From Porpolomopsis calyptriformis (taxonomy: Eukaryota; Basidiomycota; Agaricomycetes; Agaricales; Hygrophoraceae): a stretch of DNA of 64,000 nucleotides. Location of the stretch: NCBI GenBank assembly GCA_951640195.1, contig OX621167.1:1984001-2048000 (forward strand), read 5' to 3'. A program made the translations under genes and the position numbers. Shown here one piece after another: positions 50,240-64,000 of this stretch (the first letter of the stretch is position 1; each line of letters opens with the position of its first letter). The notes under the pieces were generated by a model that saw nothing but the letters and a program-made list of their open reading frames with translations, did not search any database and had not been told where the DNA came from.

Positions 50240-51739
50240 TCAGTCCTTCATCGCAAGCCAAGTGGTAACCGTATGAATTTCCTCATTGATGGTTAACGTC
50301 TCGAGTTGTGAGCAATTTTGGATGACTGAATGAGCAAATTTCAGCTGGGAGGCCCTGTCGTCGGGTCGATAAGATTGATATGTTAAGAGACGCAAAGCGG
50401 GGAACAATGATATCCACTTTGGGAAAACCAGTATCGACTGAGCTCTCGACGAACGAGGAAGGACCCAGGCACCCAACGTCAAGCCAACGACGTGATCCAA
50501 TGAGCGCTCAATCCTGCTTTTATCATTGACATCCACGTCAAGCCATGCAAGGAGAGCATCGTCATCTTGGTTAAACTCGAGGAATAGCTTGATCTCATTA
50601 GGACAGCGTGCTACGCATGCCAAGGCATTGTTCATGGCAGTGGGGTCAAATAACCTGCTGCATTTACATGGATAAAGATTGAGGAAGATTTTGCGAAGAG
50701 AGGGGAATGCAGTGACATCTTCCAGAATGTGTACGATGGATCCGCAGCATGATGCCAGTTTGGTAAGCTGCGGAAGAAAAAGTTTTTGGGGTTTGTAGTC
50801 GTCTCGAAACAAACCCTGACATTCGAGAGAAGTGATATCCTGGTGGCGAGCAAGGAAAGCAGAAACAGAAGAGAGTGAAATTTGATGGAAGTGGTCTTGG
50901 ATGAAAAATTGGGAGAGGGTAGTGCAATGGATATCTGAAAACAAGTCATCCCAGGGGAAAAATGTCAAATGCGAGTTTCTGAAGGTAAGACAGTCGATAG
51001 GAGAGGCTTCGATAAGTTTGGTGGTCCACTGGAGAAATGGGCGATTAAGAAGTGAAATTGAAGATACCCAAAGATTTGTCAACTTGGATGTGTGAAAGGT
51101 GCCTGGCAAGACAGTATCATAAATGTCGTTGGTCGGTGAGGATTTTCGCAACATTCGCCGCAATGATGCGATGAAGGTGGAAGCGTGGTTCGATGAAGGG
51201 ATATGTTGCACTTTCTGTTCATTGGTGTAAATCATCAACAAGCGGGGATCGTGGCAAATCTGCAACGTTTCGCAGGATCTGGCAATGATGTCGGTGAGGA
51301 GACGGCGGATGGCCTTGAGGAAATGAACTTCATCTGCTGGGCTCCAAAGTGTTCCCTCTAGAGAAAGATGTACACATCTCACGGATGACAGTTTGAGCAG
51401 TAAACGTTCCAGTCCACGGATTTCATTCAAATAGTAGCGGGTGGTGAAAATGCAGTAGATATCGTTGGTTGAAGTGAGTTGGACAGAGATCCTAAGAAAA
51501 GGGAGGATGTGAAAATTCCTCTTGTCCAGATCGATGAGGAGGTGTGGGTTGGCTGGATGATGGCGGGAAAGGTAACACGAGGTTGCGATGATGTTCAGGC
51601 GCCTACAAGACTTGGCCAGAGCAAATAGATCTGCTCCTTCCAACTCGTCAAATACTTGGAAAACAAGCTCGTTGGGAAGCTTTAGTAGCATGCTTATTGC
51701 CCACCTTGGTCCTGAGATGAACATATCAATTGTCCTCAT
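50240..51739 (-). CDS. F-box domain protein (LRR-like C-terminus), paralogue 1
   Basis: This is a probable substrate-recognition subunit of an SCF ubiquitin ligase. The F-box is at the start: LLKLPNELVFQVFDELEGADLFALAKSCRRLNIIATSCYLSRH. After it come the segments GLERLLLKLSSVRCVHLSLEG, LWSPADEVHFLKAIRRLL, LPGTFHTSKLTNLWVSSISLLNRPFLQW, HQDITSLECQGLFRDD and KLFLPQLTKLASCCGSIVHILEDVTAFPSL. These alternate helices and strands in the way of degenerate leucine-rich repeats. AWLDVDVND and ISLFPALRLLTYQSYRPDDRAS end the protein. The long frame starts upstream; the conservative Met is 51739 or 51691. An upstream acceptor-like CAG near 51722 suggests a 5' exon that I could not define. Confidence 0.75.
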   Translation of the reverse strand: MRTIDMFISGPRWAISMLLKLPNELVFQVFDELEGADLFALAKSCRRLNIIATSCYLSRHHPANPHLLIDLDKRNFHILPFLRISVQLTSTNDIYCIFTTRYYLNEIRGLERLLLKLSSVRCVHLSLEGTLWSPADEVHFLKAIRRLLTDIIARSCETLQICHDPRLLMIYTNEQKVQHIPSSNHASTFIASLRRMLRKSSPTNDIYDTVLPGTFHTSKLTNLWVSSISLLNRPFLQWTTKLIEASPIDCLTFRNSHLTFFPWDDLFSDIHCTTLSQFFIQDHFHQISLSSVSAFLARHQDITSLECQGLFRDDYKPQKLFLPQLTKLASCCGSIVHILEDVTAFPSLRKIFLNLYPCKCSRLFDPTAMNNALACVARCPNEIKLFLEFNQDDDALLAWLDVDVNDKSRIERSLDHVVGLTLGAWVLPRSSRAQSILVFPKWISLFPALRLLTYQSYRPDDRASQLKFAHSVIQNCSQLETLTINEEIHTVTTWLAMKD

Positions 51740-52140
51740 CTTACTACCATGGGTCACTCACCGGCTGTCGGAAAAAGTGGAAGTCAGTCGGATAAATGTT
51801 GACGTCGATTGTTCAATGGATTTTGATTTGGTAATGTCCAGAGAATAGTTTCAAGTTTGACGGTGAGCAGTGTTGAGGTCGAGAGGTCGAGCAATCAGTA
51901 CTTCAGTGAACGATCGACACCAAACTGTCCAGAAATTATTATTAATAAATAAATAGCGTGCATAAATGGTGGTCAGTACGGTAGTCATTACATAGGTAGA
52001 CAAATGCAAGCCAAAAATAGGTGGTAAAAGTGCTAGAAAGTCAGAGTAGCTATAACTTTTCTCCAGGGGACTCGGCATGTCATCTGCTGTGGATGGATCA
52101 AGGGGTAACAGAATGCCGCAGCTCCTTCGGTTGACGAGAC

Positions 52141-53589
52141 TCAGTCCCTCATCGCAAGCCAAGTGGCAACCGAATGAGTTTCCCTATTAATGGTTAGTGT
52201 CTCGAGTTTTGAACAAGCTTGGATGACTGAATGAGCGAAATCCAACCAGGAGGCCCTTGCATCCGGTCGATAATATTGAAATATTATGAGACGCAATGCA
52301 GGGAACAGTGATAGCCACTTTGTGATAACGGCTCTGGGCGAACGATGGAAAATCTGGGCGCCTACCCTCAAGGCAACGACGTGATCCAGTGAACGCTCAA
52401 TTCTGCTTTCATCATTGACATCAACGTCAAGCCATGCAAGGAGAGCGCGGTCATCTTGGATAAACTCGAGGAATAGCTCAATCTCGTTAGGACAACGCGC
52501 CACGCATACCAGCGCGTTGTTCATGATGGTGGGGTTAAATGGCCTGATGCATTGACACGGATAAAGATTGAGGAAGATTTCACGAAGAGAGGGGAATGCA
52601 GTGGCGTCTTTCAGAATGTGTACAATGGATCCGCAGCATGATGCCAGTTTCGTAAGCCGTGGAAGAAAAAGTTTGGGGTGTTCATGGTTGTCTCGAAACA
52701 AACCCTGACATTCCAGAGAAGTGATATCTTGGTGGCGAGCAAGAAAGGTGGTAACAGAAGAGAGTGAAATTCGATGGAAGTAGTCTTGGATGCAAAATTC
52801 GGACAGGGTGGTGGAATGGATACCGGAAAGGAAGTCACCCCAGGGGAAAGATATCGAACGAGTGTTTTTGAAGGTAAGATAGTTGATAGGGGAGGCATTG
52901 ATGAGTTCAATGACCCACTGAAGAAGGGGGCGATTCAGAGACGAAATTGAAGATACCCAGAGATTTGTTAATTTGGATGTGTGCAATGTGCCTGGCAAGA
53001 CAATATCATAAATGTTGTTGGTCGATGAGGGTATTCGCAACATCCAATGCAATAATGCGATGAAGCCGGAAGAGGGTTTCGATAAAGGGATATTTTGCGC
53101 ATTCTGTTCATGGGCGTAATTCAAATAACGCAAATGGGGAATATGGCTAATCCGCAATGTTTTGCAGGATTTGCCAATGATACTCGTGAGGAGACCGTGG
53201 ATGACCTTGACAAAATGAACTTCATCCGCTGGGCTCCGGAGGTTTCCCTGCATAAAAAGATGCACACATCTCATGGATGATAATTTGGCCACTAAACGCT
53301 CCAGTCCATAGATTTCCTCCAGACCATTGCCAGTGGAGACACGTGCCTGGAGATATTCAGTTGAGACGAGAGAGGTTGAGATCCTGAGAATGGGGAGGAG
53401 TTTAGGATATCCATGGATGGGAGACATAATGGCGTCCTCCGGATTGGGTATATTGCAGCGAGAGAGAAAGCAAGAGGTCGCGAGGATGTTCAGGTGTCTG
53501 CAAGACCTGGCTAGAGCGAATAGATCTGCCACATCCAATTCCTCGAATATTTGGAAAAAGAGCTCGTTGGGAAGCTCTAGCATGCTCAT
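52141..53589 (-). CDS. F-box domain protein (LRR-like C-terminus), paralogue 2
   Basis: This is 482 residues from the ATG at 53589 (MSMLELPNELFFQIFEELDVADLFALARSCRHLNILATSCFLSRC). Over its whole length it aligns with the neighbour at 50240-51739 without large gaps, including GLERLVAKLSSMRCVHLFMQG, LRSPADEVHF and SIVHILKDATAFPSLREIFLNLYPC. The shared blocks near the end are AWLDVDVNDESRIERSLDHVVALRVGAQ and KWLSLFPALRLIIFQYY. The two are clearly tandem duplicates. No introns are needed in the body. Both are preceded by the conserved ccaaggtgggc sequence. F-box families in mushrooms are large and their substrates are unknown. Confidence 0.75.
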   Translation of the reverse strand: MSMLELPNELFFQIFEELDVADLFALARSCRHLNILATSCFLSRCNIPNPEDAIMSPIHGYPKLLPILRISTSLVSTEYLQARVSTGNGLEEIYGLERLVAKLSSMRCVHLFMQGNLRSPADEVHFVKVIHGLLTSIIGKSCKTLRISHIPHLRYLNYAHEQNAQNIPLSKPSSGFIALLHWMLRIPSSTNNIYDIVLPGTLHTSKLTNLWVSSISSLNRPLLQWVIELINASPINYLTFKNTRSISFPWGDFLSGIHSTTLSEFCIQDYFHRISLSSVTTFLARHQDITSLECQGLFRDNHEHPKLFLPRLTKLASCCGSIVHILKDATAFPSLREIFLNLYPCQCIRPFNPTIMNNALVCVARCPNEIELFLEFIQDDRALLAWLDVDVNDESRIERSLDHVVALRVGAQIFHRSPRAVITKWLSLFPALRLIIFQYYRPDARASWLDFAHSVIQACSKLETLTINRETHSVATWLAMRD

Positions 53590-54058: not shown

Positions 54059-55060
54059 ATGTCCGAAATCGAACGATTCCTCACAGAAGTTGCTGAACAC
54101 ATGACAAATGCCAACAACAAATTCACCGCACTCGAATCCGACATTGCCCACCTAACGGATGGAATAACCCAGCTCCAAAGCCTAAACCTCACTCAAGTCC
54201 TCACAACCCTAAGCCAAAATATTGATGCCCTACGATGCCAGATAAGCAATGCCCCTGCAACCACTCCGCCGACCGCCCCAACTCCGACCCACATCAAACC
54301 GGCAACCCCAGAATACTACGATGGGTCCCGCCTAATGGCCAAAACCTTCTTTCGCCAAGTCACCCTATACACCGAATGAATCAGTCACGACGATGTCCTC
54401 CGCATCAAACATGCCCTCAATTTCATGACAAAAGGTCCCACCCAAGTCTGGGCCCAGACGAAATTCGATGCCTACGAAGCAGGCAGGAACCCTTTCCACG
54501 ACTGGGCTGACTTCCGTGTCAAATTCCTGCACCAATTCAACGACCCCAACCCCCAACGGACAGCAATCGAAGCCCTAGAAAAGATCAGACAAGCCGGCAG
54601 AACGGCTGATGAGTACAATGCCAAATTCCAAGCCCTAGTCGACCCAAGCAGAGTCAACGACGTCGCCGCCATCGAATACTACAAGAAAGGCCTCACCATC
54701 CCACTTCGCGACCGCATCTTTAATGTTATACCACTACCCACCACCCTAGAGGGCTGGAAAGCCCAAGCCGAAACCCTCGACCATCAGTGGCGAGAAGCTC
54801 GCACCTACACCTCCCACAACATGGGGAGAACCACGATGACTACCCGACTAGCAACCCAAACCCCCCCCACAGACCTCAATGCTACTGTCCCAATGGACAT
54901 CGACCGCACCAGACGACCCATACCAAAGTTCGTAGGCAAATGTTTCGGCTGTGGAAGAGAAGGCCACCGCGTGTCCAACTGCCCCTACGCGCAGAAAATG
55001 ATAAAGCTGATCGAAGCTAGAAAAGGCGACGAATGGTTAGCATCGTCGGATTTTCAATAG
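54059..55060 (+). pseudogene. Outer element Gag with an in-frame stop
   Basis: The N-terminal part (MSEIERFLTEVAEHMTNANNKF) is a short coiled coil. ATPEYYDGSRLMAKTFFRQVTLYTE follows, then a TGA (54377-54379), and the frame continues ISHDDVLRIKHALNFMTKGPT. The capsid-like core (DWADFRVKFLHQFNDPN; RQAGRTADEYNAKFQALV) resembles the retrotransposon Gag family. The end holds a CCHC zinc knuckle, CFGCGREGHRVSNC. Apart from the TGA the protein is complete. The stop replaces an Arg codon in the likely ancestor (CGA to TGA). Confidence 0.8.
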
Positions 55061-56641
55061 GGACACCGATACCTACCGCTCGCCTGTCCTGTAACCAATT
55101 CGCACCGCTTCAAATAGAGGAGATAGATGTCGAAAATGAGGTAGAAAGAGAAGAAATCAATGAAACCAAAAAGAGAACCCCCACCCCCACTGAAGAGCAA
55201 GCCGACCAAAACCCCCCACACATCATACGCAGAACATTCGACACAAAACTGGAAACCTCCATCTACGTCCGCCTCACCACCCCCGAAACCCTACGCTCAA
55301 CATCACAAAAGGCCCTAGTTGACTGTGGTGCTACCGACTCATTTATTGACCGACGGTACACCGAAAAGAATGAGATCCCAGTCACCGATCTTGACAAGCC
55401 TATACCAGTATTCAATGTAGATGGTACCAAGAATGCCGCCGGCTCCATCACCGGGAAAACATCCATGATCGTAGAACACCAAGGACACAGGGAACACCTC
55501 GAGCTCCTGATCACAAACCTAGGAAAAACAAACATCATACTTGGCCACCCCTGGCTTCAAAAGCACAACCCAACAATCGACTGGCGAACAGGGGAGATAG
55601 AGTTCTCCCGATGCCCCCCTGAGTGCGATATGTTGACCGAACCAAAAACCAACTCATTCGTCATAAGATTCATCTCCTCATCCAACCCCAACAAGAACGC
55701 AACCATTCCCAAAGAACTATGCCCCTGGGCCTCTGTCTTCGAGAAATCCCACTTTGATGAACTCCCGCCAGAACGTATCTGGGACCATGCCATCGAACTG
55801 AAACCTGGAGCAAAACCAGTCACGAAACGAGCCTACCCCCTGAGTAGAACCGAAACAAATGAACTCAACAAATTTCTAGATGAGAACCTCAAGACAGGCC
55901 GTATACACCCCTCGAAGTCGGAATGGGCAAGTACCCACTCCCCCTCATCTCTGATATAATCGAAGGCCTACAAGGCGCGCAATTCTTCACGAAGATGGAT
56001 ATTCGATGGGGGTTCAACAACATCCGAATAAAACCATTGGACTGTCATAAAGCTGCGTTCATCACACCCCAAGGGCTCTTTGAGCCCACAGTCATGTTTT
56101 TCGGACTGATCAACTCCCCAGCAACCTTCCAAACAATGATGAACACAATCCTCAAACCCCTGATCGATCGAAAAGTCCTCCGCGTATATATGGACGACAT
56201 ACTTATCTACACCCACACCTGTGAAGACAACATCACAACTACACAAGAGGCCCTACAAATACTGCAAGAACACAAACTATACCTCAAGGCAGAGAAATGC
56301 GACTTCTTCAAAGAGGAGATAGCCTACCTCGGCGTAATCATCTCCAAGTCAGGAACCCACATGGACCCGACAAAGGTCTCAGCCATCCTAGACTGGCCTA
56401 CACCAACCTCAAAGAACCAAGTCCAATGCTTCCTGGGCGTCTGTAACTTCTATCAGAAATTTATCAGAGATTTTGCCAAGATAGCACGCCCCCTCCACGA
56501 CCTCACAAAGAAATGTGATACGTGGACATGGAACCCAAAGGCCAACGACGCCTTCCAATTCCTAAAGCAATCGCTAACGACCGCACCAATCCTCCGATTC
56601 CCCTCCGACACTAACCCATACCGAGTTGAGGCTGACGCCTC
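55033..56641 (+). pseudogene. Outer element Pol: protease and reverse transcriptase with a deletion
   Basis: The first frame (55033-55959) overlaps the end of Gag and reads QKALVDCGATDSFID (aspartic protease active site D-x-GA) and ILGHPWLQKHNPTIDW. It then gives LPPERIWDHAIELKPGAKPVTKRAYPLS and FLDENLKTGRIHPSKS, the start of RT. At about 55918 the sequence jumps to KYPLPLISDIIEGLQGAQFF in another frame. About 30 residues of RT that normally lie between (including the PVFFVKKKDG-type block) are missing. RT then continues: DIRWGFNNIRIKP, FGLINSPATFQ and the catalytic VYMDDILIYTH. RNase H is cut at VEADAS (56641) by the nested insertion and resumes at 63532. Confidence 0.85.
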
Positions 56642-57012
56642 TGTTATGATTCGGTAGTCGAAGGGTTTTACTTCTCACGTTGGAGGGGCTGATGAGGGAA
56701 ATGGAATTCGACTAAAGAGTGGGGGAGCTAACTAGGAATCGAACTTAACCTACTGACTAAAGGTCAGGCTTTATATACTAACTACCTGAGTCGCCATGAG
56801 TCAGTCGTATGTACGATTACAAAGCGGAATCCGGAATGTGACTAGTGAAGAGTCACAAAAAGAATAACGGAAATGGAATGTGACTCGTGAAAGAGTCGGA
56901 AGGAAGGTACATGTGATCAGTCTCTATATATAAAACGGTAAAGCGGAAGGATAAACGGAATGGAGACTAATCAAGTATGACTAAGAGAAAAAGAAAAAAG
57001 GTGTCTGTGACA
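56642..57012 (-). repeat. 3' LTR of the inner element
   Basis: 371 bp with TG...CA ends. It is identical to the 5' LTR except at six C/T sites. It contains a tatata stretch near 56930 and a tRNA-like segment at 56726-56795. Confidence 0.95.
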
Positions 57013-57300
57013 TACACCCACACTAAAAGGAATTTCATCCCGAAATTCGAGGCGGCTTCGAGAGTGTTGATGTTAAGAATTGCACTGGGAACGTGCGCTT
57101 CTGATGACAGTCAAGACCACTTGACTAAAACGTCATAGAACTGGACTTACCCAGTTCGCTTGTTCCCAGTATATATACCAGATTACACGTGATTGGCTAT
57201 GAATCTGCTCGACGTTCATGAGAGACGGCCTCAGCGCGCTTGATCTCATGTCTCGAATTTCAGATTCGTGACAGTTGACGGGTGCGGAGGAGGTGAAGGA

Positions 57301-57879
57301 CTAGATTAAGTCCTTGTCGGAAATGGCGGTCGACAGGGAAATAATGTCGGCTGGGGAAGTATCGTCATCGTCAGGGATGGTGATGGGGTTCGACGATGAA
57401 CCGGGGGAAACGATGAGCAGATCTGGGAAAACAGGAGGAGCTGGGGAATCAAGATGGGGAAGTACCTTTATGACTTCCTCATATTTCGCCTCCCAGTGTT
57501 TGGCCTGTTCTCGCCAATATTCACTCACTCTTCTCTTTCCATCCAAGCTCATTCCTTGATTATACAGTTCTTCATTCAATCTCGCGATTTCGTCTTTGTA
57601 GTATTTGACGTCCTTCTGCAGTGACTCGATGATTTGCTCGGGCGGGATGGGTGGCGCGATGATTTCTTCTGGCCATATGGGAAGGTCCCGATTGCGTGTG
57701 CATCGGTTATGCTGCCAGAGTTGTCCAGCGAGCTCAGCTTCACCGTAGGCAGAGGAGGTGGAAGCGAGCAGAGGGGGAGCGCGATGAGGGGATCGTCTTC
57801 CAGTGGACATACGAGGAGCGCGGGGTGGACAACCACCGGTTGACTTGCGAGCGGTTTGGTGTGAGCATTCTGCAGGCAT
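57301..57879 (-). CDS. Extra ORF of the inner element with a histone H3 tail-like N-terminus
   Basis: 192 residues from the ATG at 57879, 120 nt downstream of the Pol stop and intact. The N-terminus is MPAECSHQTARKSTGGCPPR. Residues 8-16 (QTARKSTGG) are identical to histone H3 residues 5-13, which include Lys9, and Pro-Arg three residues later also matches H3. A basic, Ser/Pro-rich stretch follows (APRMSTGRRSPHRAPP), then an Ala/Ser-rich part and a coiled coil (EQIIESLQKDVKYYKDEIARLNEELYNQ and EYWREQAKHWEAKYEEVIKVLPH). The C-terminal third is acidic, with IPDDDDTSPADIISLSTAI. The coiled coil suggests oligomers. Function is unknown; the H3 mimicry is discussed as a finding. The ORF ends 290 nt before the 3' LTR. 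Confidence 0.75.
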   Translation of the reverse strand: MPAECSHQTARKSTGGCPPRAPRMSTGRRSPHRAPPLLASTSSAYGEAELAGQLWQHNRCTRNRDLPIWPEEIIAPPIPPEQIIESLQKDVKYYKDEIARLNEELYNQGMSLDGKRRVSEYWREQAKHWEAKYEEVIKVLPHLDSPAPPVFPDLLIVSPGSSSNPITIPDDDDTSPADIISLSTAISDKDLI

Positions 57880-57998
57880 AGTGATGTCGATTTCTAGTGA
57901 AAGACGGAGATGAAAGAGATTATAAGGACAAGTTGGAGTTTGGAAAGGTGACAAAAGTGAAAATATAAACGAGGGGAGTTGATACCGTGAAAGAATGA

Positions 57999-60900
57999 TT
58001 AGGTCGCCGTTTGAATTGAGTGCTCGTATCCTAGAATTCGTTCTTTCACATGGAGGAGATTCTTCTTCGGCTCCCAAGTTGCTTCCTCAATGGGATAGCC
58101 GACCCATTTAACCAAATACGTACGACATTGGGTAGACCCGTAGTGTTGGAGAATTTGTTCGACCTCGTATTCTTCTTTTTCCTGAATGATATCCGGAGGT
58201 GGACGGAGACTATCATCTACTTCCTCTGGATGGAGATCGGAGTTAATGTTGGCGGGTCTCAGGAGTGAAACGTGAAAGACGTCGTGTATTTTCCATGATA
58301 AGGGAAGGGCCAGGCGACAAGAGACTTTCCCGATTCTTTCTAGAACTTTGAATGGTCCAGTGCGTCAGACATCAAGCTTGAGAGTTGGACGACCTGTTTT
58401 TAAGTTACGGGTATCAAGATAAACAAATTGACCTATTTGGAGTTGGGTATCTTTCCGTTTACGATCTGCGAAGCGTTTCATAGTTTCGGCCGTTGTTTCT
58501 AGAGCTTTTGTGGCTTCTTTACGGGCTTCTGTGAGATGATCGTGAAAGGCATCTGCTGCAGGATTGGAAGTAGGGATCGCAGGGATAGATGGGACGAAGG
58601 GATGTTGGCCAGTGTCAAGGTAGAAGGGAGTGTGTTTCGTCGAAGAGTGCTGTCAGTTATTATACGCGAATTCAGCTGGGGATAGCCAGTTGGACCAATC
58701 GTCTTGCATAAAGTTTGTATATAAACGAAGGTATTGTTCAAGTTCTTGATTGGTGCGTTCCGTTTGACCATCAGTTTGGGGGTGATAAGCAGTGGATAAA
58801 CCGGAGATGATTCCCAAATGAGTATTGAGAGCTTTCGCGAATTTGGAAGCGAATTGAGTTCCTTGATCGGTTATGATCTTCTTTGGCCAGCCATGGTGTT
58901 TCCATACATTGTCCCTGAAGAGTTTTGCGACTCCTTCTGCAGAAATATTCGATGTCGTCGGGACGAAATGAGCGCGTTTGGTAAAGCGATCGATAACGAC
59001 TAAAACAGCATCGTAGCCAGATGATTGGGGGAGTTCCACGATTAGATCGGCGGTGATTTCTTCCCAAGGTCGAGACAAAGGGGGAATGGGTTCCAGGAGA
59101 CCTGCAGGTTTAGAGGGATAGAGTTTGACTTGTTGGCAGGTCGGATAGGATGATACGAATACACGGATGTCAGGGGCAGCACTACTCCAGGTGTAGTTCC
59201 GCAACACAAGCTCACGTGTCTTCTCGATTCCGGGATGGCCTCCATGGGGTAGGGAGTGGGTCAATCGAATTATCTCTGTGCATAGCAATACATCTGCTGG
59301 CACGACAATACGATCTCCTGCATCTCTCGCAATTCCGTCAGTGAAGGAGTAGCCAGAAGAGGGATCAGATAACTTGATGCGAATGTCCTCTGGGATTTGG
59401 TTGAAGTCGGGGAAGCGAAGTCTTGACATGAAAGAGGGTTCAGACATGGAAATGATAGCATTGATGAAACGTTCAGGGGGGAGGAGGGCTTGGCCTTCTA
59501 ATTCTTCTTTTTCTGTACGACAGTGGTCGGGTTGGCGAGAGAGTCCATCAGCTTTATTCTTGACTCCAGGAGAATACTCGATCTTGAAGTCGAATCTGCC
59601 TAAGAATTCCATCCAACGTGCTTGTCGTCTGGAGAGGGATCTGTTCTGCATGAAATACTTCAGCGCCAAATTGTCTGTTTTTATCAATACAGTATCCCTT
59701 GTGCCCTCTAAAAGATAGCGCCAATACTTGAGGGAAGTGACAATCGCAAGCATTTCCAGGTCATGGGTAGGATAGTTGTACTCGGCAGGGAGTAGGGACT
59801 TCGAGAAAAAGCCAACAGGGTGCCAACCATTGTCGTGTTTCTGAGACAACACCGCGCCAATACTGAAATCGGAGGCATCAGTCTCCAGGAGGTAAGGAAG
59901 GTCTGGCCGCGGGGTAAGAAGGACAGGGGCTGTAGTGACGAGATGTTTGAGTTGTTCAAAGGCTTTTTGACACAAAGGAGACCAATCCCAAGGTTGGTCC
60001 TTCCGCAAAAGTCCGCAGAGGGGACGAACGACTGAGGAGAAACTTTTGATGTAACGATGCCAGAAGTTGGTGGTGCCAAGGAAGGACTGGAGGTCTCGCA
60101 GTTTTTGGGGTGTCGGCCAATTGATAATGGCGTCTACCTTTTTTGGGTTGATAGCGAGTTGACCTTTACTGATGATCGTACCAAGGTATGTAACAGAGGT
60201 CTTCTCCATTTGGCATTTGACAGGTTTGGCGGATAGTTGATTCTTCTCCATGAGTTTAAGGGTTTCATCAGTCCAGTGGCGGATTTCTTCAGGGGTGTCG
60301 CCCATAATAAGAATGTCGTCAATATAGATGTGAACACAGCCAGAGTCTAGAACGGGTTTAAAGAGAACATCTATCATTCGTTGAAAAGATGCTGGGGAGT
60401 TTCATAGTCCAAAGAATATAACGGTCGGTTCAAAGAGTCCTCGATTGGTGATGAAGGCTGCCTTCCATTCGTCGCCTTTTCTGAGTCGTATGTTGTTAAA
60501 TCCCCATCGAATATTGATAACAGTAAAAAGTGAAGCAGTAGCAAGCTTCGGTACTTGGAGGATTTCCGATAGAAGGGGGAGGGGATAACGATCAGGAATG
60601 GTTTTCGAGTTGATGTAGCGATAGTCCTGGATGGGACGTAGACCAGCACTGAGACCTTTGGCATTGATCTCTTCGGCCTTTTTCGCAAAGAAGAAAGGAG
60701 CAGCCTGTGGTGATTTCGATGGACGTATCCGACCTGTTCTGAGATTTTCATCAATAAACTTATTAAGTTCCACTTGTTCATAGGGAGAAAGGGGGTAAAG
60801 TTTTCCGACTTGAAATTTGGTGTTCGGGTAGAGGTTGATCGCATGATCGAAGGGACGTCGAGGAGGAAGTTTGTCGAATTCTGCGGTATGGAAAACACGC

Positions 60901-61619
60901 CAGAATTTATGATAACGACTGGGAATGAAGGATTTGATGTCCTCCTCAATGGAAACTGGTCGGGAGTGGTCAACTCCAACCAAACGGATAAAGGAGTCAT
61001 GTTTCAGACTCGAATCAAAGACGTAGAGTTCTTCCTGTGGGGGCAACACTCCGACTCGCATACTACTGAACAGCGTGTCACCAGATGCAAAGGTTAAGGT
61101 GCCTTTTGTCCAATTGATGGTGGGGTTGTGTCGCAAGAGCCATGGGAAGCCGAGGATGACCTGTTGCTTTCTTCCTAAGTTGGTGACCTCCAACCGGATT
61201 CATTCTCGAAAAGATAGATCTGGTGCCTCGATAAACAGGTCTGTGTCGTGCGTGATGGGACCTCCTCAGTTCTCGGAACCATCAGCGTTTCGTACCGGTA
61301 CAACCTCATCCAACGGATAGGTCGATATCTCCATTTGACGAATGAATGCTTCGTCAATAAAATTCCCTGAGGTGCCAGAGTCGATGAGTGCTATGATAGC
61401 CACTCGTCGAAGATTGTCGGCACTCGTGATCCAAAGATAGAATTCGAGAGCGCCTTTGCCCTGTTCAAGTGTGCCAAGAAAACGAAAACTTTTCATAGAT
61501 GGTGGTACACATACATGGGACACAGCCAAAGTGCTCGGGCATCTAGCATTTGGCCGGATTAAAAATCCTTTTGCTCTTTTAACGCTCAAGCTAGCGTAGC
61601 CCGTCTCTCCTTGTCCCAA
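57999..61619 (-). pseudogene. Inner element Pol (protease, RT, RNase H, integrase, chromodomain) with in-frame TGA codons
   Basis: Protease: IALIDSGTSGNFIDEAF. RT: IDENLRTGRIRPSKSP, PIQDYRYINSKTIPDRYPLPLL, INIRWGFNNIRLR and the catalytic IYIDDILIMGD. RNase H: LLETDASDFSIGAVLSQ and DNLALKYFMQ. Integrase: zinc finger HSLPHGGHPG with SYPTCQQVK, where one expected Cys is Tyr. The DDE core is TADLIVELPQ, IITDQGTQF and HPQTDGQTERTNQELE. A GPF motif, TGPFKVLERIG, follows. The last part is a chromodomain, YEVEQILQHYGSTQCRTYLVKWVGYPIEEATWEP (about 58170-58045), ending at 57999. TGA stops lie at 58365, 58653, 60402, 61200 and 61266, each at a position where CGA (Arg) would fit. Confidence 0.9.
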
Positions 61620-62980
61620 TTCGCGATTCCCATATCCTTCAAGTCGTCTTTTGCCGTCCTTTTCTCTTTTTCGTCATCCTCTGGTACTTCCTCTATCCAC
61701 GCTTCCGATTCTTCTGTATCAACCCGATTGATCGTTCGGACATTTCGTCCTTTGCCTCGACCGCGATTTCCTCCTTTTCCTCGAGTAGAAGTTGAGGATT
61801 CTTGACGTGCCGGAACATCTTCAGCACGTGGGCTTCGACATTCGTTGGCGTAATGTCCCTTTTTGCCACAGTTATAGCAAGTGATGGAGGAGTTGTCTCG
61901 TTTCACTGTCTTGAGAGAGGCTTCTCTCGATTCTTGTTTGATCGGGGATGAAGTGGTGGTGGTGGTGGAGCGGGAAGGGTTTCCTCGGGGATTCGATTTG
62001 GCTTCAGACTTCTTTCCTTTTTGGTCTCGACTTGACCACAACGCTTGTTCAGCTCGTTGCTCCTGGTACTGTTCCTCGAACTGGGCCGCTTTCGTCGTCC
62101 AGTCCAGCAAGGTTGATGGCATGTTGTCCATCGAATAAATCCGCGTTCGGATTGGCTGGGGGAGTCCGGCTTTGTAAAACTGAAGTAGAGCGGTCTCGTT
62201 GTACTCAGTTCTTGCTGCGTGTTGCATGAACCGAAGGTTGTAGTCCTCTATCGTTCCTGTCATTTTCACTTTTTCTAGCTCGATCCGCGCCTTCGCTGCT
62301 GGGTTAATCCTTCCGAAAGCTTCCCTGAAATCATCCAAGAATGTTGCGTAGTCCCATACGAAATTCCTCGTTCTATCAACTCCTTCCGTGAACAGTCGTC
62401 CCCAAGCCTGTGGGTTGCCATCACCGAGATAAGAGAGCATGTAGATGATTTTCTGTTTGTCGTTGTAGTCCTTGACCACAAAATTGAGTCGACATTGGTG
62501 AATGAAATCTTCAAGCTTCTCGGAGGTTCCATCGTATTCAGTTGGATCGGCGATTTTGATTTTGGTGGGGGCTGGAAGTGTAGGGGGAGCAGTTGTCTGG
62601 GTAGGTTGTTGAGTGGGAAAGGTTGATGGGAGAGGAGGTTGGACGGATTCGGTTCTTCTTGCAGGGTAAACGAAAGGATTCGAGGGGGAAAGTCCAGGTC
62701 CCCAAAGTACAGATCGTCGTCGTGGGGGAGGGGTGGTTGGTTCTGAGTCTTCTCGTCGACTTTCTTTGAGAGCTTTTAATTCCTTTTGGAGTTCGTCATT
62801 GACGTCGACTTCGTTGTAGTACCAGCCACGGAACTGATCGATTTGTGCTCTTAGATCTCTGAGCTCTTGTTCGATGTTGAATGGGATGACGTCTTCTTCC
62901 TCTTCTTGAATGGTAGGGGGGATGTTGCTGGGTCCGGGTGTGGGAACGCTCTGATCAGCTTCGTATTCTTGTTGAGACAT
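61586..62980 (-). CDS. Inner element Gag
   Basis: 464 residues from 62980 (MSQQEYEADQSVPTPGPSN). A coiled coil (EQELRDLRAQIDQFRGWYYNEVDVNDELQKELKALK) and a Pro/Thr-rich linker precede the capsid-like core (PTEYDGTSEKLEDFIHQCRLNF, YMLSYLGDGNPQAWGRLF, FREAFGRINPAAKARIELEKVKMTGTIEDYNLRFMQHA). A basic region and one CCHC zinc knuckle, CYNCGKKGHYANEC, follow. The end is acidic/basic mixed. The frame is intact and overlaps the start of the protease frame by about 30 nt, which suggests ribosomal frameshifting. Confidence 0.9.
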   Translation of the reverse strand: MSQQEYEADQSVPTPGPSNIPPTIQEEEEDVIPFNIEQELRDLRAQIDQFRGWYYNEVDVNDELQKELKALKESRREDSEPTTPPPRRRSVLWGPGLSPSNPFVYPARRTESVQPPLPSTFPTQQPTQTTAPPTLPAPTKIKIADPTEYDGTSEKLEDFIHQCRLNFVVKDYNDKQKIIYMLSYLGDGNPQAWGRLFTEGVDRTRNFVWDYATFLDDFREAFGRINPAAKARIELEKVKMTGTIEDYNLRFMQHAARTEYNETALLQFYKAGLPQPIRTRIYSMDNMPSTLLDWTTKAAQFEEQYQEQRAEQALWSSRDQKGKKSEAKSNPRGNPSRSTTTTTSSPIKQESREASLKTVKRDNSSITCYNCGKKGHYANECRSPRAEDVPARQESSTSTRGKGGNRGRGKGRNVRTINRVDTEESEAWIEEVPEDDEKEKRTAKDDLKDMGIANWDKERRATLA

Positions 62981-63143
62981 TGATGTTAGTGATGATGACG
63001 AGGGGGAAAGGGGGATGATGGATTGTGCAGGGGTTTGGAATACTATGGGTTGAAAGGGAGTATCTGAATCTGCGGATGAGAAGATTGACCTTGTTAAGTC
63101 TTCGGCAGGATCCAGAGTGGAGGTAGTTTGATGTGTAAGAAGG

Positions 63144-63154
63144 AAGTTCGATTC
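63144..63154 (-). promoter_or_regulatory. Candidate primer-binding site of the inner element
   Basis: Directly inside the 5' LTR the element RNA reads agaatcgaacttcc. It lacks the usual TGG start that pairs with a tRNA 3' end. An 11 nt part would pair with the T-arm of the tRNA-like segment in the LTR of the same element. Confidence 0.4.
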
Positions 63155-63155
63155 T

Positions 63156-63526
63156 TGTTATGATTCGGTAGTTGAAGGGTTTTACTTCTCACGTTGGAGG
63201 GGCTGATGAGGGAAATGGAATTTGACTAAAGAGTGGGGGAGCTAACTAGGAATCGAACTTAACCTACTGACTAAAGGTCAGGCTTTATATACTAACTACC
63301 TGAGTCGCCATGAGTCAGTCGTATGTACGATTACAAAGCGGAATCCGGAATGTGACTAGTGAAGAGTCACAAAAAGAATAACGGAAACGGAATGTGACTT
63401 GTGAAAGAGTTGGAAGGAAGGTACATGTGATCAGTCTCTATATATAAAACGGTAAAGCGGAAGGATAAACGGAATGGAGACTAATCAAGTATGACTAAGA
63501 GAAAAAGAAAAAAGGTGTCCGTGACA
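63156..63526 (-). repeat. 5' LTR of the inner element
   Basis: 371 bp with TG...CA ends, flanked on the outer side by the gcctc duplication. Its tRNA-like segment is at 63240-63309. Confidence 0.95.
63240..63309 (-). other. tRNA-like sequence inside the LTR (also at 56726-56795)
   Basis: On the sense strand of the element, a ~70 nt segment has the order of a tRNA. A D-arm-like part is followed by an anticodon-like stem-loop (cctga, loop cctttag, tcagt; triplet ttt at the anticodon position, as in tRNA-Lys). Then comes a T-arm with gttcgattcc, which matches the RNA polymerase III B-box. The acceptor stem pairs poorly and position 33 is C rather than U, so it is not a functional tRNA gene by eye. 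Confidence 0.5.
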
Positions 63527-63531
63527 GCCTC

Positions 63532-64000
63532 TGACTTTGCAACGGGAGCCGTACTCTCCCAACTCCAAGACAACGTATGGCATCCCATCGCCTACCACTC
63601 CAGAAGCCTCGATCAGGCTGAACGGAACTATGAGATCCACGACAAAGAACTGTTAGCTATAATCCGAGCGCTTATGGAATGGCGACACTTACTCTCTGGC
63701 ATGCACCACAAATTCGACATCTGGACCGACCACCGCAACCTCGAATACTTCATGTCCACTCAACGATTAAACCGCTAACAAGCCTGATGGTCACTGTTCC
63801 TCTCCGACTTCAACTTTACCCTAACTCACAAACCTGGCAAAACCATGACAGTCGCCGACCTCCTCTCGAGATGCGAGGACCACAGTGAAGGAGTAACCTC
63901 TGACAACACCAACATTGTGGTCTTAAAACCTGAAAACATACGTCGAACAGAAATCCAAACCCACTCCGACGGTGACCTAATACTAGAACAGATCAAGAAA
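63532..64000 (+). pseudogene. Outer element RNase H continuation
   Basis: The sequence DFATGAVLSQLQDNVWHPIAYHSRSLDQAERNYEIHDKELLAIIRAL continues the VEADAS at 56641 once the nested element and duplicated bases are removed. Stops TAA (63776-63778) and TGA (63785-63787) fall in the block that normally reads Arg-Gln-Ala-Arg-Trp. FNFTLTHKPGKTMTVADLLSRCEDH follows. The element then runs out of the window. Confidence 0.85.

What the first reader, a model, noticed from the sequence alone, without database searches (positions are those of the whole stretch)
57301..58180. Retrotransposon encodes a chromodomain and, separately, a histone H3K9-tail mimic
Seen: Pol ends with a chromodomain-like sequence (YEVEQIL..., YLVKWVGYP...TWEP). 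120 nt later a separate intact ORF begins MPAECSHQTARKSTGGCPPR, which shares nine consecutive residues with histone H3 (Q5 to G13, containing K9) plus a nearby Pro-Arg. Known: chromodomains of the HP1 type and of chromovirus integrases bind H3 methylated at K9, in the ARKS context. Inference: one element carries both a potential reader and a potential ligand. The mimic could be methylated by the host enzyme and recruit HP1, titrate host silencing factors, tether the coiled-coil protein to its own integrase, or help target integration. The ORF is intact while Pol is full of stops, which hints at separate selection or youth.
Basis: partly seen in the sequence, partly recalled or inferred. Interest (0 to 1): 0.88.

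Follow-up and report, generated by a model that had tools for sequence, protein, structure and literature searches.

The report
Retrotransposon protein imitates histone H3 tail
A mobile element in a fungus-like genome carries a small extra gene whose protein begins with a copy of the histone tail segment that cells mark to silence such elements, which suggests that the element may interfere with its own silencing.

Summary
The window carries a minus-strand Ty3/gypsy chromovirus (56642-63526, TSD GCCTC) with a separate 192-aa ORF3 starting MPAECSHQTARKSTGG. It is not chance: a DNA pattern for ARKSTGG has 70 genome hits, 67 in ORF3 copies and 3 in host H3 genes; the reversed control has 2. In 57 stop-free copies (of 87 fetched) Q8, T9, A10, K12, S13 and T14 never change, although the codons of the last five vary. 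A second chromovirus family, with an otherwise unrelated ORF3, begins MPREVRYARKSTGRRPPR. Five database proteins carry one to four such tails. K14 is replaced in every mimic counted. Corrected: ORF3 is not notably more intact per codon than pol, and the mimic does not strictly track the chromodomain. Best reading: a multimeric protein displaying H3K9-tail decoys to host (or the element's own) H3K9 writers and readers. The tail is shown; multimerisation, binding and effect are inferred.

The parts
56642..57012 (-). 3' LTR (371 bp)
   Evidence: 365/371 identical to the other LTR
63156..63526 (-). 5' LTR (371 bp)
56637..56641 (.). target-site duplication GCCTC, one side (other side 63527-63531)
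61586..62980 (-). gag, 464 aa (Ty3_capsid and zinc knuckle)
58653..61193 (-). pol pieces: RT, RNase H, integrase zinc-binding and core; open frames 60402-61193 and 58653-60377, interrupted between them
57999..58190 (-). integrase C-terminal chromodomain up to the pol stop at 57999-58001
   Evidence: read; Pfam PF00385 and HP1-type structure matches made on copy L042; conservation
57880..57998 (-). 119-nt spacer with TATA-like words (57969-57961 and 57924-57919) before the ORF3 ATG; possible own promoter (inference)
57301..57879 (-). ORF3, 192 aa, H3-tail mimic plus long helix
57832..57858 (-). H3 Q5-G13 mimic QTARKSTGG (ORF3 residues 8-16)
57787..57819 (-). second H3-like repeat (residues 21-31, Met24 at the K9 position)
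57448..57642 (-). long predicted helix, residues 80-144, presumed coiled coil, related to family B ORF3

Best explanation
ORF3 is an accessory protein of a chromovirus, made as its own cistron downstream of pol. Its disordered N-terminus imitates the H3 tail around K9 (residues 5-13), and a long helix, presumably a coiled coil, makes it a multimer that displays many such tails. The most likely action is as a decoy in the H3K9 silencing pathway: the first copy (K9 kept, K14 replaced, usually by Arg) is a substrate or ligand for the host H3K9 methyltransferase and for chromodomain readers, and the second copy (Met at the K9 position) may hold the methyltransferase the way H3K9M does. The effect would be weaker or redirected silencing of the element. 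Shown: sequence, architecture, conservation, recurrence in a second element family, a host gene with a Pre-SET domain. Inferred: expression, multimerisation, nuclear location, methylation, binding, anti-silencing effect, and that the Pre-SET gene is the H3K9 writer.
For: The ARKSTGG pattern in this genome is confined to H3 genes (3) and ORF3 (67) of 70 hits. Full QTARKSTGG stands in 47 of 57 stop-free copies and 62 of 87 in all. Site-wise selection analysis on 56 distinct stop-free copies: T9, A10, K12, S13, T14 have posterior of purifying selection 0.99-1.0, while residues 17-20 of the same tail have dN/dS about 1; K12 is AAG 42 and AAA 15, S13 TCT 35, TCA 17, TCC 5 in the 57. The motif recurs on a family C ORF3 whose remainder shows no detectable relation to A's, whereas A's helix region is shared with family B, which has no mimic: the module is attached to different bodies. 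Five database proteins carry 15 further tails, all with K9 kept and K14 replaced (R 12, H 2, Q 1); one is labelled Daedalea quercina. Second repeat (measured on copy L028): 8 of 11 residues match the first unit, reached by 1 of 20000 shuffles of residues 21-80; Met24 in 57 of 57 stop-free and 84 of 87 copies. H3K9M peptide inhibits Clr4, and H3K9M traps it (PMC5030085, abstract and two results sections read). Predicted disordered residues 1-42 and helix 80-144, block pLDDT 83-98 over residues 81-140 (mean 63, pTM 0.31). One Pre-SET hit in the genome.
Against: No expression, binding or methylation data. The second repeat is under weaker constraint (ratio 0.49) and its R8 equivalent is His in 27 of 57 stop-free copies; in subfamily L031/L100 it reads HMSTE. 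Arg11 (H3 R8) is lost in 7 of 57 stop-free copies. For G15 and G16 the analysis shows no clear constraint (posterior 0.55, 0.37), nor for Q8 (0.76). The motif's dN/dS (0.16) is only slightly below that of the helix region (0.20), and 0.28 when all 87 copies are used. In 41 family C copies, chosen to span divergence, ARKSTG is intact in 13 only (11 of the 25 without a stop in the first 60 codons), the losses being mainly R8 to Cys/His, A7 to Thr and S10 to Leu; Lys9 stands in 41 but its codon never varies, and I ran no selection test there. No HP1 chromo-shadow domain was found, but that search rang nowhere, controls included.
Confidence: 0.45

Rival explanations
1. Self-tether: K12 of ORF3 is methylated by the host and bound by the chromodomain of the element's own integrase (or by HP1), linking ORF3 to the pre-integration complex or to heterochromatin and steering integration, with no intended effect on silencing.
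For: Both mimic-bearing families (A and C) carry a chromodomain just upstream; the presumed cage residues are kept in A and, by eye in one copy, in C (L104); the one ORF3 family without chromodomain lacks the mimic.
Against: Family D has chromodomain and ORF3 but no ARKS; only four ORF3 families were compared, and one search scored 150 of 718 chromodomain candidates; a Met at the K9 position in the second repeat has no role in this model.
Confidence: 0.28
2. The N-terminus is a generic basic, Pro/Ser/Thr-rich disordered tail (nuclear localisation or nucleic-acid binding) that happens to resemble H3.
For: The tail is Arg/Pro-rich; Pfam finds nothing in ORF3; Arg11 drifts in 7 of 57 stop-free copies.
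Against: Exact 9-residue match beside x-x-P-R; K12, S13, T14 fixed in 57 of 57 while neighbouring Arg residues drift; recurrence on an unrelated ORF3 and in five database proteins.
Confidence: 0.17
3. A relic: a fragment of a host H3 gene was captured once and is carried along without function.
For: The match covers exactly Q5-G13, which in one host H3 gene (L081) looks by eye like a mini-exon between two introns, and all three H3 genes appear to have an intron after G13 (reading); codon identity with host H3 L082 is 6.17 of 9 against 3.61 expected, P 0.017, uncorrected for three genes.
Against: Purifying selection at five residues; no clear codon excess for the other two H3 genes (L083 4.72 against 3.22, P 0.17; L081, the gene with the mini-exon, 3.98 against 3.65, P 0.54), though the best single copy matches L083 at 8 of 9; K14 replaced in all mimics counted.
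Confidence: 0.08

Closest known systems
EZHIP (mammalian K27M-like inhibitor of PRC2)
   Same: A non-histone protein with an H3K27M-like histone-mimic motif, called an oncohistone mimic (PMC12713659, abstract read)
   Different: EZHIP imitates H3K27M and is a host gene; ORF3 imitates H3K9, is retrotransposon-encoded, and has both a Lys and a Met copy; inhibition untested
H3K9M mutant histone trapping Clr4
   Same: Met at K9 followed by STGG (PMC5030085, abstract and two sections)
   Different: Not a histone; the preceding residue is Arg or His; Q-P-P-R follows in most copies instead of K-A-P-R
G9a/GLP automethylated histone-mimic motifs that bind HP1
   Same: H3-like Lys in a non-histone protein that becomes a binding site for HP1 proteins (PMC9768651, passages)
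   Different: Those lie in the methyltransferase itself; ORF3 is a mobile-element product
Basidiomycete Ty3/gypsy chromoviruses (e.g. MarY1, Laccy, Tcn clades)
   Same: LTRs, gag-pol, integrase with C-terminal chromodomain (PMC2864245, passages)
   Different: The words third ORF, additional ORF and H3K9 do not occur in that paper's text; the clade of this element was not determined here

Membership tests
Ty3/gypsy chromovirus | Paired LTRs with target-site duplication | tested here: met
   365/371 LTR identity, GCCTC on both sides
Ty3/gypsy chromovirus | RT, RNase H, integrase and C-terminal chromodomain | tested here: met
   Pfam on window pieces and, for the chromodomain, on copy L042; conserved in 70 loci
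Histone H3 (core histone) | Histone fold | tested here: not met
   No Pfam hit in ORF3; prediction shows two main helices and disorder (low overall confidence)
H3K9-tail mimic | H3-like sequence around K9 above chance and selectively kept | tested here: met
   (family A only; not tested in family C)
H3K9-tail mimic | Modified by H3K9 enzymes or bound by H3K9 readers | not testable with these tools
   needs peptide assays
K-to-M histone-mimic inhibitor (EZHIP-like) | Met replacing the target Lys in an H3-like context, conserved | tested here: inconclusive
   Met24 57/57 stop-free, 84/87 in all, but preceding R/H mixed, segment ratio 0.49, and GG lost in subfamily L031/L100
K-to-M histone-mimic inhibitor (EZHIP-like) | Inhibits the methyltransferase | not testable with these tools
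   needs enzyme assay

The most novel reading that the evidence does not exclude
Chromoviruses have repeatedly acquired an H3K9-tail decoy protein, and in one lineage duplicated it into a bait (K9 kept, K14 locked as Arg) plus a K9M-type trap (K14 as Gln) on a multivalent coiled coil: a retrotransposon-encoded oncohistone-like inhibitor of the host H3K9 methyltransferase.
Probability: 0.25. Interest if true: 0.94.

Novelty: new variant of a known kind. Interest (0 to 1): 0.82.

Why it matters
Histone mimicry is known from viruses (recalled), host enzymes and EZHIP. A transposable element that carries an H3K9-tail mimic, and possibly a K9M-like trap, would be a direct counter-defence against heterochromatin. 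It would make the question of how elements escape heterochromatin testable with a 35-residue peptide. Ten literature searches listed no paper that I recognised as describing this; they cover open-licence PMC only, some listings were capped, and I judged them by title and start of abstract.

Tried and rejected
Single-sequence search of 5.8 billion proteins with ORF3 found nothing at E 0.01; only the profile reached P0002 (E 0.13, a weak score whose match is the motif itself). Viral contigs: no relative of the integrase-chromodomain; three hits to a QTARKSTGG pattern: in L102 and L103 the matching frames read QTASK[ST]TGG, Ser in place of Arg; the frame in L101 was not settled. Frameshift fusion of pol and ORF3 rejected: the frame offset between them varies (39, 20 and 10 of 69 loci, two more unread). 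A spliced ORF3 mRNA was considered: an AG before the ATG is present in most but not all of the ten rows displayed; left open. Capture from host H3 against convergence: inconclusive. 'ORF3 intact, pol broken' as a sign of separate selection: rejected. Exclusive pairing of mimic and chromodomain: weakened by family D. Family C as a second test of selection: uninformative.

Full report
What is there. The window lies in a 33.5 Mb genome of 17 contigs with H3 genes that appear to carry introns. A basidiomycete is likely (one related mimic protein is labelled Daedalea quercina), but the species was not identified. A Ty3/gypsy element lies on the minus strand at 56642-63526: LTRs 365/371 identical, GCCTC on both sides, inserted into the RNase H region of another gypsy element (read). 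Gag, RT, RNase H and integrase domains are found by Pfam in window pieces. Pol ends in a chromodomain; the same segment of copy L042 matches Pfam Chromo and HP1-type chromodomain structures. The aromatic positions that I recall as the HP1 methyl-lysine cage are Y, W, Y in 69/69, 69/70 and 70/70 loci. ORF3 (57301-57879, 192 aa) follows after 119 nt.

Is the H3 likeness chance? A degenerate DNA pattern for ARKSTGG gives 70 hits in the genome; the reversed pattern gives 2. Of the 70, 67 lie in ORF3 copies and 3 in host H3 genes. One search lists 128 matches to ORF3; the 109 rows at E up to about 2e-11 form family A, 94 of them with at least 150 codons (some rows are pieces of one copy).

Selection. 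57 of 87 copies have no stop. In these 57, Q8, T9, A10, K12, S13 and T14 are invariant; all but Q8 vary in codon (K12 AAG 42, AAA 15; S13 TCT 35, TCA 17, TCC 5). The full QTARKSTGG stands in 47 of 57 and in 62 of 87; K12 is Lys in 85 of 87. My site-wise grid analysis (56 distinct stop-free copies) gives overall dN/dS 0.36 (lnL -6300 against -6729 at 1). Regional ratios: mimic 0.16, residues 17-20 0.97, second repeat 0.49, linker 32-46 0.45, helix region 80-141 0.20, C-terminal tail 0.50. With all 87 copies the mimic ratio is 0.28. Within the mimic the clear sites are T9, A10, K12, S13 and T14; Q8, G15 and G16 are not clear, and R11 is lost in 7 of 57, in CpG-type changes, which the model does not treat. 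So the mimic is about as constrained as the helix, and more than its neighbours in the same disordered tail.

A second, K9M-like copy. ORF3 continues, in most copies, P-R/H-M-S-T-G-G-Q-P-P, then often Arg. In copy L028 the best ungapped match of the first unit (ARKSTGGRPPR) downstream is 8 of 11, reached by 1 of 20000 shuffles of residues 21-80 and 0 of 20000 of residues 21-50. Met24 is kept in 84 of 87 copies (Ile in 3) and Ser25 in 87 of 87. Residue 23 is His in 50 and Arg in 37, never Cys, although other CpG Arg codons give Cys as well as His. An RMSTGG pattern has 47 genome hits against 6 for its control, 37 of them in ORF3. Fission-yeast H3K9M blocks and traps Clr4, and H3K9M peptide inhibits Clr4 in vitro (PMC5030085: abstract and two results sections). 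Against this: the weaker constraint, the His, and subfamily L031/L100 reading HMSTE.

Other families. The ARKxTG pattern has 206 hits against 78 for the control; the listing of places was cut. It exposed family C: 135 matches in the genome to a 229-aa ORF3 that in L105 begins MPREVRYARKSTGRRPPR, downstream of a chromodomain (ARKSTG in 6 of 7 loci fetched). In 41 family C copies read over 60 codons (40 fetched to span divergence, plus L105) Lys9 stands in 41, but ARKSTG is intact in 13, and in 11 of the 25 without a stop; R8 is lost in 22, A7 in 9, S10 in 8. The codon of Lys9 never varies, so selection cannot be judged there. Profile comparison finds A and B ORF3 related over the helix (probability 96), A and C alike only around the mimic (58), and A and D unrelated (0.9). 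Family B (about 20 copies) has no Chromo hit in the one integrase piece read and no mimic. Family D has a chromodomain and an ORF3 without ARKS; family E has a chromodomain and a pol extension without an ORF3 that I could see (eight loci fetched, out of 150 chromodomain hits listed and 718 candidates). So, of the families examined, the mimic sits in two of three with chromodomain and ORF3, and in none of one with ORF3 but no chromodomain. Other families may exist.

Database relatives. The profile search gave P0002 (E 0.13) with three QTARKSTG tails; P0002 as query gave P0003 (1.7e-5), P0004 (6.8e-3), P0005 (0.54) and P0006 (3.1). The last two are weak by score and were accepted here on the motif alone. 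In 15 tails the K14 position is R 12, H 2, Q 1. In family A, position 17 is never Lys in 87, and in family C the K14 position is R 25, H 13, C 3 in 41. Since P0002 itself has Arg there, the database search may favour such hits. H3K14 ubiquitin activates Clr4 (PMC12407891, abstract), so loss of K14 could separate bait from productive methylation (inference).

Expression. The pol-ORF3 frame offset varies among copies (39, 20 and 10 of 69), so ORF3 is a separate cistron. TATA-like words precede the ATG in the ten rows displayed, with a few deviations. Origin: codon identity with host H3 is suggestive for L082 (P 0.017) but not for L083 (0.17) or L081 (0.54). H3 gene L081 appears to have a mini-exon coding just Q5-G13 (reading), the same span as the mimic; that is also close to the span seen in the G9a-K9M structure (peptide residues 3-12).

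Mechanism. Shown: an H3K9-like tail, conserved, predicted disordered, in front of a long predicted helix (11 sequences, mean pLDDT 63), in an element with a chromodomain, in a host with one Pre-SET hit. Inferred: multimerisation, and action as a decoy for the H3K9 machinery with a possible K9M-like trap. The chief rival is a tether to the element's own chromodomain. The two differ in which reader binds, and in whether Met24 matters.

Noticed in passing
P0002-P0006 (database proteins, no genomic context): Small proteins with one to four H3-tail copies (ARK[STG]TG); one is labelled Daedalea quercina hypothetical protein; K14 not kept in any of 15 tails.
   Followed up: partly
L105:309-998 (+), L104: Second chromovirus family (135 matches to its ORF3 in the genome) whose otherwise unrelated ORF3 begins MPREVRYARKSTGRRPPR in L105.
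   Followed up: yes
L111:375 onward (+); L115: Third chromodomain family with an ORF3 that starts MPATRSTRSPSP and has no ARKS.
   Followed up: partly
L081 (G000:C2:3412800-3413400): Host H3 gene in which Q5-G13 looks by eye like a 25-nt mini-exon between two introns, the same span as the mimic.
   Followed up: partly
ORF3 residue 23, window 57813-57811: His in 50 and Arg in 37 of 87 copies, never Cys, unlike other CpG Arg codons: perhaps a kept basic residue.
   Followed up: no
window 50240-53589 (-): Two tandem related genes of about 500 aa (direct repeats 72-84% identical, 1.9 kb apart) that look like F-box proteins by eye (recalled, not tested).
   Followed up: no
window 54059-56641 and 63527-64000 (+): Another gypsy element split by this insertion in its RNase H region.
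   Followed up: partly
L112-L114, L116-L118: Chromodomain family whose pol continues roughly 140 aa past the chromodomain; no separate ORF3 seen.
   Followed up: no
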